From positions 1-64,000 of IMG/VR virus record IMGVR_UViG_3300022689_000130: DNA of 64,000 nt, one strand, 5' to 3'. Under the pieces are notes generated by a model. It made no database searches and was not told the DNA's origin. It worked only from the letters and a program-made list of their open reading frames with translations. Below, one piece after another: positions 13,509-59,154 of this stretch (position 1 is the stretch's first letter; the number at the start of each line of letters is the position of its first letter). This DNA comes from a virus. A program made the position numbers and the translations under genes.

Positions 13509-14153
13509 ATGAATACTTATCAACCCTACACCTATCTGATCGGATGGTCTAATCTTGACCGCTGGTATTATGGTGTCAGATACGCACAAGGTTGCCATCC
13601 GTCTGATCTTTGGGTCTCTTACTTTACATCTTCCAAACATGTATCTCTTTTTCGTGAAGAGCATGGTGAACCTGACGTTATTCAAGTTCGCCGACTTTTT
13701 AAAACTGCACAAGACGCAGTTCTTTGGGAAGACAAAGTCTTACGTCGCACTGACGCTATTTACAATGACTGTTGGATAAATCGCTCCAATGCAGGTCATT
13801 GGGATACAACGTTATCTAATCCGAATCCTCTTGCTGGAAAAACATATGAAGAGGTTTATGGTGAAAAAGGGTTGCGATGGCTTGAGCGAAAACGGCAAGG
13901 AAATATTGACTGGTGGGATTCTGCCAAATCTGACAACTGGCGAAAAGAACTATCGATTCGATCCAAACAAAATACCAAATTTACCACTAAAGGTCTTGTT
14001 CCACATAATAAAGTTTTTGATACCTTTGATTTTACTTGTGAGTTCTGTGGATGTCAAGAAACTCGTCGCGATACCGCTACGCAACGAAAGAAGAAAACTT
14101 GCGGATCCAAATCGTGTGCGCAGAAATGGACCCGCAAGTATCGCCCTCGTTAG
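13509..14153 (+). CDS. GIY-YIG-like homing endonuclease
   Basis: The N-terminus YTYLIGWSNLDRWYYGVRYAQG has the paired YLI...YYG motif of phage GIY-YIG-type endonucleases, followed by DLWVSYFTSSKHV and an Arg/Glu-bearing segment. The middle (NPLAGKTYEEVYGEKG) is a NUMOD-like linker. A C-terminal zinc finger is visible (CEFCGC and CGSKSCAQ). It is one of few plus-strand genes, carries its own promoter, and its stop overlaps the nrdJ stop by four bases. It is therefore an inserted selfish gene beside the reductase, a common target of such elements. Confidence 0.75.
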   Translation: MNTYQPYTYLIGWSNLDRWYYGVRYAQGCHPSDLWVSYFTSSKHVSLFREEHGEPDVIQVRRLFKTAQDAVLWEDKVLRRTDAIYNDCWINRSNAGHWDTTLSNPNPLAGKTYEEVYGEKGLRWLERKRQGNIDWWDSAKSDNWRKELSIRSKQNTKFTTKGLVPHNKVFDTFDFTCEFCGCQETRRDTATQRKKKTCGSKSCAQKWTRKYRPR

Positions 14154-34977: not shown

Positions 34978-35471
34978 AGCTCGCTTATGTCGAGGACATC
35001 AGGGATCTTGTTTGTCTCCTTGACAAAGAATGCGCAGTGGCTTCTTGGCTCATCGCTTAGCGGGACCGCTAGCAGATGCCCTTGTTTGAGTTTGGGGAAG
35101 TGCCATTTGACTTCGCTGTAGATGTTCGTAATCTCGATCGGTTGATATCTTGGCATATAGCTCGAGATAGGATTGATGGTGAACGCTGAGAACCCTCTGT
35201 CATTGAGTGACGTGATAGGTATAACCTCAGGATCGCCAATCTCGCTGTCGCATATGATAAGGCTCCAGTCGATCGGCATTTTGAATGAATAGTCTCCTAC
35301 TTTCAACACTGCTGCTGGTGCGTTGAAGATCTCAAGGAACACTAGTGGCATGAAGTAATAATCAGGATTACTCTTGTCACTGTAGTCTAAGACGCAATAG
35401 CGAATGTCATCAATCTCTTCAGGTACAAAGTCGAGTTCGTACGGAGTATTGTCAGAAGTCAATATGCGCAT
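34971..35471 (-). CDS. Phage protein of unknown function in the replication block
   Basis: 166 residues, mostly beta: MRILTSDNTPYELDFVPEEI, MPLVFLEIFNAPAAVLKVGD, then PSDE-type acidic turns and HCAFFVKETNKIPDV. No family is recognised. Its start overlaps the end of a decayed homing endonuclease by 13 bases, so the insertion lies exactly between it and uvsW. Confidence 0.55.
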   Translation of the reverse strand: MRILTSDNTPYELDFVPEEIDDIRYCVLDYSDKSNPDYYFMPLVFLEIFNAPAAVLKVGDYSFKMPIDWSLIICDSEIGDPEVIPITSLNDRGFSAFTINPISSYMPRYQPIEITNIYSEVKWHFPKLKQGHLLAVPLSDEPRSHCAFFVKETNKIPDVLDISELW

Positions 35472-36092
35472 AATTCATCCCATTCATTCTCCCAAATCTC
35501 AATTAACTGAAATCCTGCACTTTGTATTTTTTTACGTTTTTGTTGAGTCATTTCATATAATTCCTCGAATAATTTTCCATTCTTTCCATTACGATCATTT
35601 AAATTAAAAATTTTTGGATTACCATGCCAAAAATCTCCCCAAAACTCATATACAACATTCCCAACTAAAGCATCAACTATAAATCTTTGTCCATCAATAT
35701 ATATCACTTTCTGTCTATTTTCAAAACCGACATTCATTGAATCCAGCCAAGAAATTTCTTTCCAAGAACGATTTCCAGAAAAACAATATGGACATCCCCT
35801 TTGGTAGGTAATATGCGATTTAGGAGAAATATGAAATGCTCCATGGATCTTACATTTTACAATCACGTCCGAATAATTATTAATATAATCAACCTTTGTA
35901 TAGTCATACCGATTTTTATGAATGACGTTTGCTTCAGAAATGAATTTATCATTTGATTTTCGTAATGTTTTATAACCACTCTATGTAATTAACGTGTGAA
36001 ACATCCAAGCCTAATTTATCAGGATATTTTTCAATAAATCTTCTAAGAAAAGTTTTAGTATTTAATTTTTCATTATATTTCCAAATTGTCTA
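35459..36092 (-). pseudogene. Decayed Vsr-like homing endonuclease
   Basis: The intact 3' part (35459-35938) reads SEANVIHKNRYDYTKVDYIN, VIVKCKIHGAFHISPKSHIT, GCPYC, then an endonuclease core with FIVDALVGNVVYEFWGDFWHG and LIEIWENEW, as in phage Vsr-like enzymes. The 5' part (36092-35980) is open in another frame (WKYNEKLNTKTFLRRFIEKY). One missing base around 35975 would join the frames (EWL to YKTLRK). No ATG is in frame. It lies immediately downstream of uvsW. The AT content is higher than in the flanking genes. Confidence 0.7.
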
Positions 36093-42948: not shown

Positions 42949-43525
42949 TATTCTTTTCCTTTACGTTTGTTCTGCGCATCCCTGCGAGCTTGCGACCAAG
43001 GAATACCTTTTTTAGTTTTACTCATGTTTTCTCGATGTTCGTCTGAAAATTTCATGCCTTTCCTTGCTTCTGATAATTTACGCCGACTATCTGGTCGTTT
43101 CATTGCATTGTTGCGAGACATTTTTAACTTTGTCTCTTCAGTATGCTTCAATCCCAATGTCCATTGGAATTGAATTTGCCCTTTTTAGCCTGAGATACCT
43201 TTGCTGCAACTTCTGGTCTTTTCATTGGATGATCATCGCCTGATAATCTATTACCTTCAAAATTATCTGAAGCTGTATTAATTAGATTGTATGATTTATT
43301 CGATTTGGCTGCATCAAACTCAGTTAAGAGTTTTCTTTCTTCATCCAGATAATTTGGACCTTGGTAGAGAATTTCTCGTTCAAAATTCTCTATGCCATGT
43401 TTTTCAAATGATTGTCGGATTAGAACACCGCTAGCAGTGTAGCCATCATCAGGACTACCTTTGTGTGATCCAATATAACATTTACCGTTTAGTTTATTGG
43501 TCCAGCGATATACAAATCCAGCCAT
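42948..43525 (-). pseudogene. GIY-YIG homing endonuclease with one-base frameshift
   Basis: The 5' part (43525-43158) encodes FVYRWTNKLNGKCYIGSHKG, the GIY-YIG motif, then FEREILYQGPNYLDEERKLL with catalytic-type Arg/Glu. The second part (to 42948) holds NUMOD3-type repeats (HTEETKLKMSRNNAMKRPDS, KFSDEHRENMSKTKKG). The frames meet at 43157. One more G in a GGG run would restore the reading NGHWGLKHTEETK. It therefore looks like a single gene broken by a one-base loss. It sits between gp32 and uvsX. Confidence 0.8.
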
Positions 43526-47451: not shown

Positions 47452-47895
47452 CTATTTATTCCATTCGCGTATTTCAACATCAAAATTTTTCGCCTTGATG
47501 CGATCGACTACATGCGACAGGTATTTTTGTCCCATCACAGTTGAACTACTACGCTTAATTGCTTTATTTTGATTTCTAGCATAGTCAACCGCAGCTTGAT
47601 AGAGTTCACTAGCTAATCCGCGATTACGATAATCTTCGTCTACTATAACGTGTTTAAGCCAAAATTCTCTATCGTCATACGGATTCAGCTCTAATGCAAG
47701 ACTAGAAACAACACGCCGTCCATCAAAATGTACCAAATGTATTTCGTTATTCATATCTCCTGGATTCAGATATTGAAGACGATTGAATACATCCGGATTT
47801 GCATCTTCGTTACGATTGATGAACAAATGCAAATCAGCGCCTGCTAGCATGTTCAGACGCAAATCATCATTTTCAAACAGATGGCGATATCTCAT
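47452..47895 (-). CDS. GNAT-family acetyltransferase with prohead leader
   Basis: 147 residues. VIVDEDYRNRGLASELYQAA is the acetyl-CoA-binding motif A (R-x-x-G-x-A). The preceding strand HLVHFDGRRVVSSLALEL is typical of the fold. The N-terminus MRYRHLFENDD has the same form as the MRLR-leaders of other genes, with an LFE site, so the enzyme may be packaged and injected. It touches the large terminase 3' half by one base. Substrate unknown; host proteins or small molecules are possible. Confidence 0.75.
   Translation of the reverse strand: MRYRHLFENDDLRLNMLAGADLHLFINRNEDANPDVFNRLQYLNPGDMNNEIHLVHFDGRRVVSSLALELNPYDDREFWLKHVIVDEDYRNRGLASELYQAAVDYARNQNKAIKRSSSTVMGQKYLSHVVDRIKAKNFDVEIREWNK
47453..47460 (-). 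promoter_or_regulatory. Late promoter abutting the start codon
   Basis: AATAAATA, GTAAT, ATG 47447. Confidence 0.6.
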
Positions 47896-48983
47896 TACAA
47901 GAATCCTACCGGCATAGGACGTCTTAGATCGGTATCGTCAAAGCTGTCTTTTAAATCATCAAATGCATCCGGATCATAACGTGCTACCTGCATAGCCATT
48001 CGGACTGCTAACAGAGTCGACATAACCAAATCGTCCGTTTCTCCTTCTTTAGCCTTATAGCTATTTCCTTGAGCGACGAATGTTTTAAGTTCACGGGTAA
48101 GATTTTTACTGCGAATTTTCATAGTTCCTTCTTCAACCCATCGTTTTAGTTTTGAGCAGGCAGCAAGCTTTGTTGAATGCGTTGTGTTAAATCCTTTGCG
48201 GAAGCGTCTTACATTACCACGACGTCTTGGTTCGCTAAGAAAGATACCTGGCAAGTTCTCTTCACCCATTTCATCAATAGAAACCAAAGCTGCTTCTCCC
48301 AATGTATTATTTTCTACCGAGTAATAAATTTCACTATTTGGTGCTGCCTCTTCGATTTCTTCCAGTATACTTTTCAAAATTTTAATTTGTCCTTGAATCG
48401 GCGTCTTGTTATGCTGCCACTCACCAATCTGACGCATACTGGGCAGAGCAAAAATTTCGATTGCGGCCGGGTCGCCTCCTGTTCCTAAACTAGGATCAAG
48501 TGCTACCAAATAAGTTTGGTTATCCTGTAGTGTATCATACCATCTAATCTGTCCGGAGCGCCGCATTGGTTCCATTCCCAAATCCATTTCAGAAAGAAAA
48601 ATTGGATTAATAAGCGTTTCATCGAATGCAATGAACTCACAGTTCGAAACAAGAATGTCGTTTCCATAAAATCGATTGCCGTCATCTACTCCAATTAAGT
48701 CGTATACCGGTTCAATTCTTCCTGTATAATCTGCAGATGTAACAGTAAGAGGTTCGCCTAATGCTGAAACTTGATCACCAACAACAAACGTGTCTGCAAA
48801 GCGTTTATTACCATCTACGTCGTAGATTCCATGATTGTCTGTGCATTCAATAAAAGTTCCATTATCAAATTCAATTCGATATATAGGCCGATCACCCATA
48901 GATGCAACACCTTTAAAGTGTTGATATCCATTAGGCGTTAATACTTTTAAATTTTTCTTGTTCTCTTTGAAAATCTGCGTCAT
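47895..48983 (-). CDS. 17: Large terminase gp17, C-terminal half, preceded by split-intein C-part
   Basis: Residues 1-114 are the C-terminal intein fragment: NKKNLKVLTPNGYQHF at the start, IECTDNHGIYDV (the TxxH block B), and the end ILVSN before Cys115. Residues 115-362 are the C-extein, starting CEFIAFDETLINP, the end of the ATPase domain, then the nuclease domain: YLVALDPSLGTGG (metal-binding Asp), YSVENNTLGEA (Glu) and ETDDLVMS (Asp). The penultimate intein residue is Ser rather than the usual His. A late box (49004-49011) gives this half its own promoter inside the 3' end of the endonuclease gene. Confidence 0.88.
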   Translation of the reverse strand: MTQIFKENKKNLKVLTPNGYQHFKGVASMGDRPIYRIEFDNGTFIECTDNHGIYDVDGNKRFADTFVVGDQVSALGEPLTVTSADYTGRIEPVYDLIGVDDGNRFYGNDILVSNCEFIAFDETLINPIFLSEMDLGMEPMRRSGQIRWYDTLQDNQTYLVALDPSLGTGGDPAAIEIFALPSMRQIGEWQHNKTPIQGQIKILKSILEEIEEAAPNSEIYYSVENNTLGEAALVSIDEMGEENLPGIFLSEPRRRGNVRRFRKGFNTTHSTKLAACSKLKRWVEEGTMKIRSKNLTRELKTFVAQGNSYKAKEGETDDLVMSTLLAVRMAMQVARYDPDAFDDLKDSFDDTDLRRPMPVGFL

Positions 48984-49980
48984 CTTCTAGTATCCTATAC
49001 GTATATTTATTTTCAAAGAGCCATAATTGAAATCTATAACCTTGATCAATTACTGCATCGCGCTTGCGAAAATTATTGGTTAGTCTTGATTCATATCTCG
49101 GATCTAAGTTGCCATTCCACCACCATACACTTTTCACTTCAATGATTAAGTTTTCAGTTGGAATATAGATGTCTGGGTAATATTTCCATTTGTGTTGATT
49201 GACATTAATATATTCAAATAATGGTAAATTATATTTTGTTTTTCTTTGTCGATTATCAATAATCAATTCATCTTCATTATATTTTTTTAATAATTCATCT
49301 AATACTAGATTTTCATATCCACGAATACCAATTACTTTTCCAGATGGCAGTATGTAATCGCGTCCTTCATTATTTTTCTTTGCTGCTAATTTCTGAGTTT
49401 CTTTGTTAAATGTATTTTCAACTCCATATCGTTTAAAAGTTGTTTTGCGGCGCTTATCATTTATTTCATTCTGCTCTTGAATTGATTTGTTTCGATTCTT
49501 TTCTGCAGATTTTTCCCAACCTGCATAATATTCATTACCATATTTTGCTAATTTCGTTTGTCGCGACTTTTCTTTGTATTCACTTGACTGTGTCGCCCAG
49601 GGCACCCCATATTTTTCTTGAAAAGTTTTTGATGCTTTTTTCTTTTGCCGTTCAATTTGTTCTGGTGTTCGTTTAGCTGCGGCTTTGATCTTATTGATAC
49701 TGTCTTGTTGGCGTTGTTCGTCTGTCCAACCTTGCTTTGTAGCAGCTACAGAAGTGCCTACACATTTGGGATCACCACAGCTATTAGCATATGATTCACT
49801 TTTTTGATAAAATGTCAGAGGCTTCAAACATGAACACAGAGGAGTGATTTGTTTTTCATATATCTCATAATAGTCTTTATATGTGAGATCATGTTTGCGT
49901 AGATGTCTAGTAAATTGTCCGTTTGTTTTGCAGTATGATTGATTGTCAATTTTGCTTGTAATATAGATTGTTTGTTTCAT
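48931..49980 (-). CDS. Vsr-like (PD-(D/E)XK) homing endonuclease between terminase halves
   Basis: About 349 residues from ATG 49980; an upstream TTG at 50010 is also in frame. The N-terminal domain has Cys pairs (LCSCLKPLT, CGDPKC). The middle holds NUMOD-like repeats with YGVPWATQ and RYGVENTFNKE. The C-terminal nuclease core shows GIRGYENLVLDELL, WKYYPDIYIPTENLIIEVKS with D and E-x-K, and RDAVIDQGYRFQLWLFE. It lies exactly between the two intein fragments, an arrangement reported for 'fractured genes' with split inteins. It overlaps the downstream half by 53 bases. It is AT-rich compared with terminase. Confidence 0.8.
   Translation of the reverse strand: MKQTIYITSKIDNQSYCKTNGQFTRHLRKHDLTYKDYYEIYEKQITPLCSCLKPLTFYQKSESYANSCGDPKCVGTSVAATKQGWTDEQRQQDSINKIKAAAKRTPEQIERQKKKASKTFQEKYGVPWATQSSEYKEKSRQTKLAKYGNEYYAGWEKSAEKNRNKSIQEQNEINDKRRKTTFKRYGVENTFNKETQKLAAKKNNEGRDYILPSGKVIGIRGYENLVLDELLKKYNEDELIIDNRQRKTKYNLPLFEYINVNQHKWKYYPDIYIPTENLIIEVKSVWWWNGNLDPRYESRLTNNFRKRDAVIDQGYRFQLWLFENKYTYRILEDDADFQREQEKFKSINA
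49004..49011 (-). promoter_or_regulatory. Late promoter for the terminase C-terminal half
   Basis: AATAAATA, 20 bases before ATG 48983, inside the endonuclease gene. Confidence 0.6.
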
Positions 49981-50010
49981 AGTGCTTTCATTTAAATGTT
50001 TCTTCTCCAA

Positions 50011-50916
50011 CTATTTATCTATTGTTTCAAACAAATCTCCAATTTCTATTTCATATTCTGTATTTCCGTCACTTATTTTCAAAAGTGTTGCGCTGTTACA
50101 ACACTCGTGCTCACGGCGAAATCTCTCGTCACCAATTTTAGCACGTTCGTTATCAGCCCATTCTTGGTCGCGCTCTGGATGTTGATCCCATTTGACCAAA
50201 TATGGACGAAATCCATTGATGCCTAGTTCTGTTTCATTTCCAAATTCATCAACATTCTTGTTAGCCTGCTTCCAAATCTGAGCAAATTGGTCGTCATCTT
50301 GGTTTGGGGTTGAAGTGATAATACATTTACCACCAGTTGATAATGTTGGTGAAATAGAAGTCCAAAATTCTTGTGCGACACGAGGCGGCACAAATGCAAA
50401 TTCGTCCAAGTAAACTAGTGAAAGCGACAAACCACGGCCAGTATTTTCGGTTGTGGCTTGTGCAACAATTTTGCTGCCGTTATCGAACTCGATGGAGCCT
50501 TTGTTATATGCTGTCACGCCCGCCCTGACATAGTCAGGACAACTCTCATACATATAACGCAGGCGTGTCATGATTTCCTGCGCGCCCTCACGCTTGTGTG
50601 CTGCTACAAGAATTGTGCTGTCTGGCTTGAACATCGCAAACCATAATAGATATGCTGCCGCGCAAGTTGACTTACCTGTCTGACGACTAAGCAAACTGAT
50701 TGAGTATCGATAATCGTTGTAGCTGTTGATCAAGCCTTCTTGATAGTCGAACAGCTTAAAAGGCATGCGACCTTTGGTAGGGTGCTGAATAAAACAGTGG
50801 TTACGGATAAAATGCAGTGGATTAATTGTACAGAGCGCTAACTCCTGCAACTCCGTCTGTGACATCTTTTCCGTTGTATACGGGCGTTTGACTAAGTCTG
50901 TGTTTACAGTATTCAC
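50011..50916 (-). CDS. 17: Large terminase gp17, N-terminal half, followed by split-intein N-part
   Basis: The motor that packages DNA into the head. Residues 1-271 are the ATPase domain: LSLLSRQTGKSTCAAAYLLW (Walker A), LSLVYLDEFAFVPPR (Walker B), CIITSTPNQDDDQ (motif III), then DERFRREHE. Residues 272-301 (CCNSATLLKISDGN...) form a 30-residue N-terminal intein fragment: Cys1 with Thr6 as in block A. Splicing would join ...RREHE to CEFIAF of the other half, giving a 519-residue terminase. The start is GTG 50916 with AGGAG upstream. Such a short N-fragment recalls the Ace Lake TerL intein. Confidence 0.88.
   Translation of the reverse strand: MNTVNTDLVKRPYTTEKMSQTELQELALCTINPLHFIRNHCFIQHPTKGRMPFKLFDYQEGLINSYNDYRYSISLLSRQTGKSTCAAAYLLWFAMFKPDSTILVAAHKREGAQEIMTRLRYMYESCPDYVRAGVTAYNKGSIEFDNGSKIVAQATTENTGRGLSLSLVYLDEFAFVPPRVAQEFWTSISPTLSTGGKCIITSTPNQDDDQFAQIWKQANKNVDEFGNETELGINGFRPYLVKWDQHPERDQEWADNERAKIGDERFRREHECCNSATLLKISDGNTEYEIEIGDLFETIDK
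50012..50019 (-). promoter_or_regulatory. Late promoter for the endonuclease gene
   Basis: GATAAATA overlapping the last codons of the terminase N-terminal half. Confidence 0.5.
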
Positions 50917-57477: not shown

Positions 57478-59112
57478 TTAATAATGTATGTGGTTATTTA
57501 TCCATACATATTTGGCATTTCCACAGTCCCAGATTCGATTCCATCCTTCTTGGTCTCGTAGTTGAAATTCAGTGAGAATTGAATCAGCTGGCTTTTTCAA
57601 TGAGAACCTATGTCTTCTTTTTGTCGCATCAATATACCAATAGTTTATTGGAGATACTGATTTAAATTTAAATCCAAGAGACTCATAAACTTTTCCGTTG
57701 TTCCATCTCAAATCAGAAAATGTAATTACATTAGATGGATTAAAATCTTTAACAAATCTCTTGAACAATTTTGATGCGCCGCCAACCACCACGACATCAG
57801 TCTGTGAACAAAATCTAGAAAGTTCCCATCCCTTTTGTTTTTTGCTTGCATCTCCATTACGAAAAGTCATGACCGAAACAATCCTGCCTTGATCGAATAA
57901 TCCGTAATTCACACTGGCGTTATGATAACCTTGAATATGAAACTGATCACAGAAACTCCTAGCCTGTGCTGCACTGATTGGTTTACATATGGTTTTTCTG
58001 GCATAGATTTTGTCGCCAATTAGTCCTAATTTATGTAATAATCTAGCCTTTACAATATCACGTTTGTGAAGCCATTCATCTTCAAATATAGTAATCAAGT
58101 CGTATCCGTTTTCTTTGCATTTGGCAAGCTTTTCACTGTGATATTCTCGCGCAACTCTTTTGTCATTATGCCAATATAGTCCACAATACTCGATTGCTAA
58201 CTTACGATCTTTGATTACGATATCAAGTTCTTGAGGTGCAATCAAGGTTCGGTTGTTTCTATCCACATCAACATAATGTTCAAGAAAATCTGCAATTTGG
58301 TTTTCAGCAATGCTACCTTTGTTATTAACGCCCAGACATCTGCTACAAATTTCACCAAATGTACGCAACCTGTATTTGATTGTTTCGGTAGTTAGTATTT
58401 CCTCTTTATGGCATTCCTGGCATCGAATTTCAATACGGCAATTTGGATTTTTATATGCAGCTTGTAAATCCAGGCTTGGAGTATGTATCTTCACAATGTC
58501 AGCATGTGAGTTTACCAGAATCGAAAATGTATTGCATTGCCGTTGTCGTTGTTTTTCTCTCCACTCGTCGCTTTCAAAATAATTGTCAACTCCGTAATTT
58601 TTCCGCAATGTTGCTTTGCATTTCTCCCTATGATTTTCAATTTGACTTGGGTTTGAAACTCCATACCGATTTTGTAATGTTTCCCTCCCTTTTGTATTCA
58701 ACACTAGTGCCCGTTCACGAGCTGATTCAATGGCGGTCGGACTGACTTTTTGCCCATATTTTTTGATATTTGTAGCAATACGTTTTTTTTGAGTTTCCTC
58801 CATTTTAGCTGGATTATCAACTCCATAAAGTTCAATCATTGATTTGCGCATCTTATCAATTGCTGATTCGCCTATTTGTTTCTTTAATTTTTCTCGGCAT
58901 TTTCTTGAACAAGTTGTTTTCCCTCGATCAGGTAAATTGCCACATACAGCACATTTAGGAATTGGATCATCGCTGAGTATAAGATAACATTGATATGAAA
59001 AGTCTTTGTCAGGAAACTGTAATTCAAGCCATTCAATCATTTCTTTAGTTAGATGTTTGCGCCTGCTGTTTCGAGGGCAAGATTGTAGTATTTGTCGTAT
59101 TTGTTGTTTCAT
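57478..59112 (-). CDS. Large Vsr/PD-(D/E)XK-type homing endonuclease
   Basis: 544 residues from ATG 59112. The N-terminal zinc-binding part has CAVCGNLPDRGKTTCSRKC. Three NUMOD-like repeats follow (YGVDNPAKME; YGVSNPSQIE; YGVDNYFESD). A second Cys pair (CQEC ... CSRC) precedes the nuclease domain with APQELDIVIKDRKLAIEYCG and LYWHNDKR, CKENGYDLITIFEDEW. The C-terminal 180 residues form a further domain (YGLFDQGRIVSVMTFRNGDA). It lies between the sheath gene and the ExbB-like gene. Late box GATAAATA stands five bases before the ATG. Confidence 0.8.
   Translation of the reverse strand: MKQQIRQILQSCPRNSRRKHLTKEMIEWLELQFPDKDFSYQCYLILSDDPIPKCAVCGNLPDRGKTTCSRKCREKLKKQIGESAIDKMRKSMIELYGVDNPAKMEETQKKRIATNIKKYGQKVSPTAIESARERALVLNTKGRETLQNRYGVSNPSQIENHREKCKATLRKNYGVDNYFESDEWREKQRQRQCNTFSILVNSHADIVKIHTPSLDLQAAYKNPNCRIEIRCQECHKEEILTTETIKYRLRTFGEICSRCLGVNNKGSIAENQIADFLEHYVDVDRNNRTLIAPQELDIVIKDRKLAIEYCGLYWHNDKRVAREYHSEKLAKCKENGYDLITIFEDEWLHKRDIVKARLLHKLGLIGDKIYARKTICKPISAAQARSFCDQFHIQGYHNASVNYGLFDQGRIVSVMTFRNGDASKKQKGWELSRFCSQTDVVVVGGASKLFKRFVKDFNPSNVITFSDLRWNNGKVYESLGFKFKSVSPINYWYIDATKRRHRFSLKKPADSILTEFQLRDQEGWNRIWDCGNAKYVWINNHIHY
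57495..57502 (-). promoter_or_regulatory. Late promoter of the ExbB/ExbD-like cassette
   Basis: GATAAATA, 28 bases before ATG 57466, inside the 3' end of the endonuclease gene. Confidence 0.55.
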
Positions 59113-59117
59113 GCTTT

Positions 59118-59125
59118 TATTTATC
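59118..59125 (-). promoter_or_regulatory. Late promoter abutting the endonuclease start codon
   Basis: GATAAATA, AAAGC, ATG 59112. Confidence 0.6.
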
Positions 59126-59154
59126 ACACACTACTGCGAAATTTTTTACATATT

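What the first reader, a model, noticed from the sequence alone, without database searches (positions are those of the whole stretch)
47895..50916. Large terminase split into two genes by a naturally split intein flanking a homing endonuclease
The ATPase half ends with a 30-residue intein N-fragment starting CCNSAT. The nuclease half begins with a 114-residue intein C-fragment ending ILVSN before a Cys. Joining RREHE to CEFIAF restores a continuous terminase of 519 residues. A Vsr-like endonuclease gene lies exactly between them, and each downstream piece has its own late box. The short N-fragment recalls atypical split inteins such as that from an Ace Lake terminase. The penultimate Ser in place of His and the double Cys at the N-junction are unusual. 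Packaging would depend on protein trans-splicing.
Basis: partly seen in the sequence, partly recalled or inferred. Interest (0 to 1): 0.88.

Follow-up and report, generated by a model that had tools for sequence, protein, structure and literature searches.

The report
Phage packaging motor split by intein
This phage's DNA-packaging enzyme is encoded as two separate proteins that almost certainly splice themselves together through a split intein with a nuclease gene between the halves. The kind is known, but relatives collected here appear to build the same motor from up to four pieces.

Summary
On the minus strand of a T4-like phage contig (144,664 bp), TerL is encoded as an ATPase half ending in a 30-aa IntN, a nuclease gene, and a 114-aa IntC fused to the nuclease half. 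57 uninterrupted relatives run through the same point. IntN+IntC forms a complete mini-intein: the profile and the predicted IntC fold both match Cat, the consensus of AceL-TerL/GOS-TerL, first in the PDB. A related contig has the intein unsplit at this site. So this is a new member of a known kind: an atypically split TerL intein in a 'fractured gene'.

Corrections: the endonuclease has a PD-(D/E)XK motif (DUF7487); Vsr kinship is only weakly supported. It overlaps IntC by 53 nt. Late boxes are not above chance. Penultimate Ser and double Cys recur in relatives.

Relatives show mobility: at least 17 gains or losses on the TerL tree, and an exchange tract ending at the splice junction. Four nuclease classes, or none, occupy the slot; some are decayed beside intact inteins. 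Three relative lineages have TerL split at Walker A, Walker B and this site: four polypeptides needing three trans-splicing reactions. Splicing itself is inferred, not shown.

The parts
50104..50916 (-). TerL N-extein: ATPase half (271 residues, Walker A RQTGK, Walker B VYLDEF), start codon GTG at 50916
   Evidence: Terminase_6N 1.8e-18; phrog_36964 terminase 7e-69; 57 uninterrupted homologues continue across the junction
50014..50103 (-). IntN, 30 residues, CCNSATLLKISDGNTEYEIEIGDLFETIDK; Cys1 codon 50103-50101; stop 50013-50011
   Evidence: aligns to the N-terminal part of contiguous TerL mini-inteins, including L108 at the same site; Cys1 invariant in the aligned members
48931..50010 (-). 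homing-endonuclease-like ORF (359 aa from TTG 50010; more likely 349 aa from ATG 49980): Cys-rich N-terminal part, KYGVxN-type repeats, C-terminal PD-(D/E)XK motif (E233, D280, E291, K293)
   Evidence: DUF7487 3.5e-31; phrog_3339 homing endonuclease 3.6e-11; motif nearly invariant in 18 relatives
48931..48983 (-). 53-nt overlap of the HE 3' end with the IntC start, in different frames; conserved in L003, L004; in L017 the HE frame is broken here while the IntC frame is kept
   Evidence: sequence; L017 stop
48642..48983 (-). IntC, 114 residues: TxxH (Thr48, His51), block F YDL (Asp95), penultimate Ser113, terminal Asn114
   Evidence: 6dsl CatC phmmer 4e-13, profile 1.7e-15; AF2 pLDDT 92.5, Foldseek top hit 6dsl 2.9e-7, then VidaL 6vgv
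47895..48641 (-). TerL C-extein: nuclease half (248 residues) starting with Cys+1 (CEFIAF)
   Evidence: phrog_36964 8e-52; terminase nuclease structures 3c6a and T4 gp17 3cpe; contiguous with the ATPase half in intein-free relatives

Best explanation
The locus is a large terminase gene fractured by an atypically split class 1-type intein of the AceL-TerL/GOS-TerL kind, inserted at the end of the ATPase domain (RREHE|CEF). The two precursor proteins, ATPase-IntN30 and IntC114-nuclease, are translated separately. IntN docks on IntC to complete a Hint fold. Cys1 and Cys+1 then carry out the N-S shift and transesterification, Asn114 cyclises, and a native 519-residue TerL is released. The gene between the halves encodes a free-standing PD-(D/E)XK-type homing endonuclease, which probably cuts intein-free terL alleles at or near the insertion site in mixed infections, so that IntN, endonuclease and IntC are copied in together. 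Shown here: precise insertion point, complete intein with a full set of catalytic residues, Hint fold, a cis counterpart, constraint, sporadic distribution, and a recombination tract ending at the junction. Inferred: the splicing reaction in the cell, cleavage by the endonuclease, and dependence of packaging on splicing.
For: Residue-exact continuity with intein-free TerL. Profile of IntN+IntC hits Cat 1.7e-15, gp41-1 4.6e-12, VidaL 2.4e-11, NrdJ-1 2.7e-9 and DnaE in the PDB. IntC AF2 model and Foldseek. L108 has the same intein unsplit at the same site (IntC part 54% identical), joining the IntN region directly to QIFKEN. In 47 distinct split members the B-block T/SxxH and Cys+1 are in all 47, and Cys1 and Asp in block F are invariant in the aligned ones. 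Protein-level constraint on IntC, pN/pS 0.15-0.33 among window, L002 and L003. No other TerL in the record. Intein presence needs at least 17 changes on the TerL tree, 9 forced by well-supported branches, and the window's nearest relatives are intein-free. In L003/L004 IntC has pS 0.34 against 0.80 in the nuclease half, and the high-identity tract stops at the intein/extein junction. The HE is decayed in L017-L019 with IntN and IntC intact.
Against: No protein evidence. Neither of the two assisting histidines for Asn cyclisation (F:13, penultimate G:6) is present in the window: Arg and Ser stand there. Splicing without a penultimate His is documented (references in PMC4031507), but loss of both may make C-cleavage slow. 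IntN shows weaker constraint (pN/pS 0.48-0.52 against L002/L003), though on 30 codons only. The HE model is poor (pLDDT 53.7) and its fold and target site are not shown. The record may be a fragment.
Confidence: 0.93

Rival explanations
1. The two halves are never spliced. They assemble non-covalently into a working two-chain terminase, as described for HE-split nrdA of phage Aeh1, and the intein fragments are leftovers or an assembly clamp.
For: Split phage enzymes that work without splicing exist (nrdA of Aeh1, gene 43 of phage 25; PMC2988022). The split lies at the ATPase/nuclease boundary, where a two-chain enzyme is conceivable. Both assisting histidines are missing in the window.
Against: Cys1, TxxH, Asp F:4, Asn and Cys+1 are kept across diverse members (the terminal Asn was part of the scan pattern for most of them). 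The junction is residue-exact. L108 carries the same intein in cis, where splicing must restore the chain. In L113, L132 and L174 related split inteins break Walker A and Walker B themselves.
Confidence: 0.04
2. The intein splices, but the gene in between is not its homing endonuclease: it is an independent free-standing HE, or a domesticated nuclease, that happened to land in the loop and does not move the intein.
For: The slot is filled by unrelated nucleases in relatives (PD-(D/E)XK, Vsr-like, HNH, GIY-YIG) or is empty. Free-standing phage HEs often cut at a distance from their own gene (PMC2988022).
Against: One HE family recurs in this slot across many lineages. The exchange tract in L003/L004 runs through the HE 3' part and IntC and stops at the splice junction. 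Decay of HEs next to intact inteins fits a homing cycle. Several HE types overlap the IntC start.
Confidence: 0.25
3. Assembly or frameshift artefact: a contiguous intein-HE gene broken by sequencing errors.
For: Only one record was available for the window itself.
Against: The same three-gene order is found in independent contigs (L003, and L121 with five further contigs; L002 with another HE) and cultured phages such as HY03 and JK32 have analogous splits. The HE starts and ends in frames that differ from both halves, with a conserved overlap.
Confidence: 0.01

Closest known systems
AceL-TerL / GOS-TerL / Cat atypically split inteins (PMC11766414; PDB 6dsl)
   Same: Host protein TerL, split after the first helix, short IntN (25, 37, 30 aa) and long IntC (104, 115, 104), Cys+1; CatC is the best PDB match by sequence and by fold. 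The C-flank 'CE' in the CatC chain agrees with the window's CEF site.
   Different: 30/114 split; penultimate Ser where CatC has His; 35% identity to CatC over the fold alignment; genomic context with an HE gene known here. The flanking sequences of the AceL locus could not be compared directly.
Fractured genes of Dassa et al. 2009 (NAR 37:2560; not held, cited from reviews)
   Same: Two gene halves ending and starting with split intein parts, with a free-standing endonuclease gene in between.
   Different: The window's HE carries a PD-(D/E)XK motif in DUF7487. The clearly Vsr-like type sits in the same slot in L002 instead. Whether TerL was among Dassa's loci could not be checked.
VidaL split intein (PDB 6vgv)
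   Same: Second Foldseek hit and strong profile hit. Found in a P-loop of another gene, downstream of a split TerL, in L136 and L137.
   Different: IntN of 16 aa, split after strand 2 (PMC13014065); different gene.
Contiguous TerL inteins of mycobacteriophages (PMC5050341)
   Same: TerL as the main phage intein host; P-loop (Lys|Thr) and Walker B insertion sites like sites A and B of the relatives; splicing shown.
   Different: Contiguous, with the HE inside the intein; no trans-splicing.
MIJ3 PolB split intein with HNH gene between (PMC6892783)
   Same: Same gene order: half, HE gene, half.
   Different: Another gene (polB), and block B lies on the N-terminal fragment (canonical split).

Membership tests
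Class 1-type intein (Hint fold) | Cys/Ser1, B-block TxxH, C-terminal Asn, Cys/Ser/Thr+1 | tested here: met
   C1, T48-D-N-H51, N114, C+1
Class 1-type intein (Hint fold) | Hint fold | tested here: met
   IntC model pLDDT 92.5; the confident Foldseek hits (E <= 0.001) are inteins, BIL domains or Hedgehog domains; profile hits
Class 1-type intein (Hint fold) | Assisting His at F:13 and/or penultimate G:6 (common, not obligatory) | tested here: not met
   Arg at F:13 and Ser at G:6 in the window; splicing without penultimate His is documented
Atypically split TerL intein (AceL/GOS/Cat) | Short IntN (about 15-37 aa) ending after strand 2 or helix 1, long IntC | tested here: met
   30/114 split aligned with contiguous homologues and CatC
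Atypically split TerL intein (AceL/GOS/Cat) | Same insertion site in TerL | tested here: inconclusive
   CatC chain in PDB ends ..HACE, matching the CE(F) C-extein; AceL flanks themselves not available
Atypically split TerL intein (AceL/GOS/Cat) | Splices in trans | not testable with these tools
   needs protein expression
Fractured gene with free-standing HE | HE-type gene between the two gene halves | tested here: met
Vsr-like homing endonuclease | Vsr/EDxHD-type catalytic domain | tested here: inconclusive
   motif is PD...EVK; 1vsr only at E 0.29, prob 0.69, on a poor model; clearer relation between the L002 HE and window 57478-59127
Homing endonuclease | Cuts the intein-free allele and drives its conversion | not tested
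   indirect only: sporadic distribution and exchange tract
T4 late promoter control of each piece | TATAAATA boxes upstream, above chance | tested here: not met
   3 in the window against 2.7 expected, none at these genes

The most novel reading that the evidence does not exclude
The window is the simplest state of a TerL in which split inteins sit at up to three sites: Walker A (between Lys and Thr), Walker B and the ATPase/nuclease boundary. In three lineages (L113/L114, L132/L133, L174) the packaging motor would be assembled from four separately translated chains by three mutually orthogonal trans-splicing reactions. The loop at each split acts as a slot in which unrelated nucleases (PD-(D/E)XK, Vsr-like, HNH, GIY-YIG) replace one another while the intein stays. 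I know of no natural protein described as joined by three split inteins, but the key 2009 survey could not be read here.
Probability: 0.7. Interest if true: 0.68.

Novelty: new member of a known kind. Interest (0 to 1): 0.52.

Why it matters
It places the AceL-type split inteins, used as protein-engineering tools, back in their phage genomes with an endonuclease gene beside them, and shows that the endonuclease slot turns over while the intein persists. The relatives supply dozens of new short-IntN split inteins, including sets of three within one protein that must not cross-react, which would be natural orthogonal pairs. Cultured phages with analogous splits (HY03, JK32 at the Walker B site; Vibrio phage Va1 at this site) make it directly testable whether an essential motor waits for trans-splicing.

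Tried and rejected
Late-promoter boxes: not above chance, and one is merely the Asp-Lys-stop codons. HE structure prediction: pLDDT 53.7, so its Foldseek hits (RecE, Vsr, Hjc) are only suggestive; a profile of 18 HEs found no PDB relative. IntN alone found nothing in the PDB (too short). Viral scan with the HE alone gave one locus. dS is saturated in most pairs, so pN/pS is given. Frequencies of Ser/Lys and the final Asn in the large set are biased, because the scan pattern contained [SK]N; only the loci are free of that. Several viral-contig loci are repeats of one contig under different ids; rows were dereplicated before counting. HE types in the large set were assigned by sequence motifs with spot checks in Pfam; 'no HE' includes Va1, where the HE is fused to IntC.
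Full report
What is there. The window is bases 1-64000 of a 144,664-bp IMG/VR virus record with a T4-like gene set. All parts lie on the minus strand. ORF 50916-50011 encodes the terminase ATPase half (Terminase_6N) followed by 30 residues absent from uninterrupted terminases. ORF 50010-48931 encodes an endonuclease-like protein. ORF 48983-47895 encodes 114 extra residues followed by the nuclease half.

Is the joint real? The first scan of viral contigs returned 80 loci. In the roughly 70 uninterrupted ones, the window's ATPase residues end at 271 and its nuclease residues begin at 1 without gap or overlap, apart from a residue or so of alignment slack. A TerL profile built from 57 uninterrupted proteins puts the break of the split ones at the same position.

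Is it an intein? IntC alone finds the consensus atypical intein CatC (6dsl) in the PDB at 4e-13. A profile of IntN+IntC from seven split loci finds CatC (1.7e-15), gp41-1, VidaL, NrdJ-1, DnaX and DnaE. AlphaFold2 models IntC at pLDDT 92.5, and Foldseek ranks Cat first and VidaL second, with further inteins, BIL domains and Hedgehog domains after. IntN+IntC (144 aa) aligns end to end with contiguous TerL inteins. The best of these is L108: same TerL site, IntC part 54% identical to the window's, but one ORF in which the IntN region runs straight into QIFKENKLNLKVLT. This is the unsplit twin of the window's intein.

Catalytic residues. Cys1, Thr48xxHis51, Asp95, Asn114 and Cys+1 are in place, a class 1-type set. 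Both residues that usually assist Asn cyclisation are replaced: F:13 is Arg and the penultimate residue is Ser. CatC lacks the F:13 His but keeps the penultimate one. Splicing without a penultimate His is documented (references in PMC4031507), and from general knowledge the fast Npu DnaE intein also ends in Ser-Asn. In relatives found without using that motif, the penultimate residue is Ser or Lys. The double Cys at the start recurs in L138, L141 and L147-L151 (CCNG, CCAQ). Neither feature is peculiar to this phage.

Constraint and mobility. Among window, L002 and L003, IntC has pN/pS 0.15-0.33. On a tree of the nuclease half, presence of the intein changes at least 17 times, 9 of them forced by well-supported branches; the window's closest relatives L009 and L005 are intein-free, as are the sisters of L003 (L012) and L002 (L015). 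L003 and L004 differ at 80% of synonymous sites in the nuclease half but only 34% in IntC. Along their alignment identity is about 0.9 from mid-HE to the end of IntC and about 0.75 from the start of the extein. That is what transfer of the element between diverged terminases leaves behind.

The endonuclease. P0002 belongs to DUF7487 (3.5e-31) and matches a homing-endonuclease PHROG. In 18 relatives from the same slot the near-invariant residues are E233, P279-D280 and E291-V-K293, the PD-(D/E)XK signature. Vsr is only a weak structural hit on a poor model, so 'Vsr-like' is not established. Homology suggests ATG 49980 as the start. The last 53 nt overlap the first codons of IntC. In L017-L019 the same HE has an in-frame stop and a lost C-terminus, the latter in this overlap, while IntN and IntC are intact; L120 and L128 also carry broken copies. 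Such decay beside an intact intein fits the homing cycle.

The slot. At the same insertion site, relatives carry this PD-(D/E)XK gene, an HNH/NUMOD3 gene (L021-L023 and most of L159-L181), a Vsr-like gene (L002), GIY-YIG-like genes (L169, L174), or no gene (L113, L118, L132, L151, L172). Contiguous mini-inteins without HE also occur there (L108, L154-L156, L180). Vibrio phage Va1 has this site split with the HE fused in frame to IntC. Krischvirus JK32, at the Walker B site, has the HE fused to IntN, and Tequatrovirus HY03 has three separate genes. The intein persists while nucleases come and go, and the gene borders shift.

More than one split. The TerL of relatives is cut at three places: A, in Walker A (RQxGK|TT); B, before Walker B (LLY|CDEF); and C, the window's site. 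Among 104 dereplicated rows, 30 are split at C only, 9 at two sites, and 3 lineages (L113, L132, L174) at all three, giving four ORFs; four more combine a contiguous intein at A with one or two splits. In L132 the pieces are 122, 249, 246 and 365 aa, each middle piece beginning with an IntC and ending with an IntN, and the three inteins share about 24-38% identity in IntC. Independent contigs (L133, L114) repeat the arrangement. If all splice, the motor needs three specific trans-splicing reactions. Campylobacter phage CP21, a cultured phage, appears to carry three inteins in TerL, one of them split; the related IBB_35 was described as having 'an intein and an intron' there (PMC3322345), which may be the same thing misread.

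What was not confirmed. Late boxes: TATAAATA is at chance in the window and absent at these genes. Splicing, cleavage by the HE and the need for splicing in packaging remain inferences; the absence of a second TerL in the record supports the last, though the record may be incomplete.

Verdict. Observation right, interpretation essentially right. New member of a known kind, with a family around it that is richer than the single locus suggests.

Noticed in passing
L132:1107-6098, L174:373-5438, L113:2298-5671: TerL encoded as four separate ORFs by three split inteins (Walker A, Walker B, ATPase/nuclease boundary).
   Followed up: partly
L136:9071-10336 and L137:9071-9694: An IntC matching VidaL in a P-loop (HN|SGKSYFCAGNIV, probably uvsX), about 3 kb downstream of a split TerL in the same contigs: the likely home genome of VidaL.
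   Followed up: partly
L085 (Escherichia phage HY03), L082-L084 (Krischvirus JK32, kaaroe, G2494), L086 (Vibrio phage Va1): Cultured phages whose TerL is fractured by split inteins, annotated as two terminase genes or as hypothetical proteins.
   Followed up: partly
L090 (Campylobacter phage CP21), 630-4916: TerL with three inteins (contiguous in the P-loop, split before Walker B with a gene in between, contiguous right after it). The IBB_35 paper's 'intein and intron' may be the same arrangement.
   Followed up: partly
L017-L019, about 2974-4050 of L017: HE pseudogene (in-frame stop, lost C-terminus) between intact IntN and IntC.
   Followed up: yes
window 57478-59127 (-): A 549-aa free-standing homing endonuclease (phrog_3339, DUF7487 + REase_MTES_1575) next to the tail sheath gene; 29% identical to the HE in the TerL slot of L002.
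   Followed up: partly
window 43148-43525 (-), 13509-14153 (+), 35459-35866 (-): Further HE-like genes: one matching PHROG homing endonucleases beside a gp32-like gene, one on the opposite strand next to a ribonucleotide reductase gene, and a short HNH/HE-PHROG fragment.
   Followed up: no
L089 (virus vir335 of Methanomassiliicoccales): Contiguous intein in a non-T4-type TerL of an archaeal virus, ending ILVSN|C.
   Followed up: no
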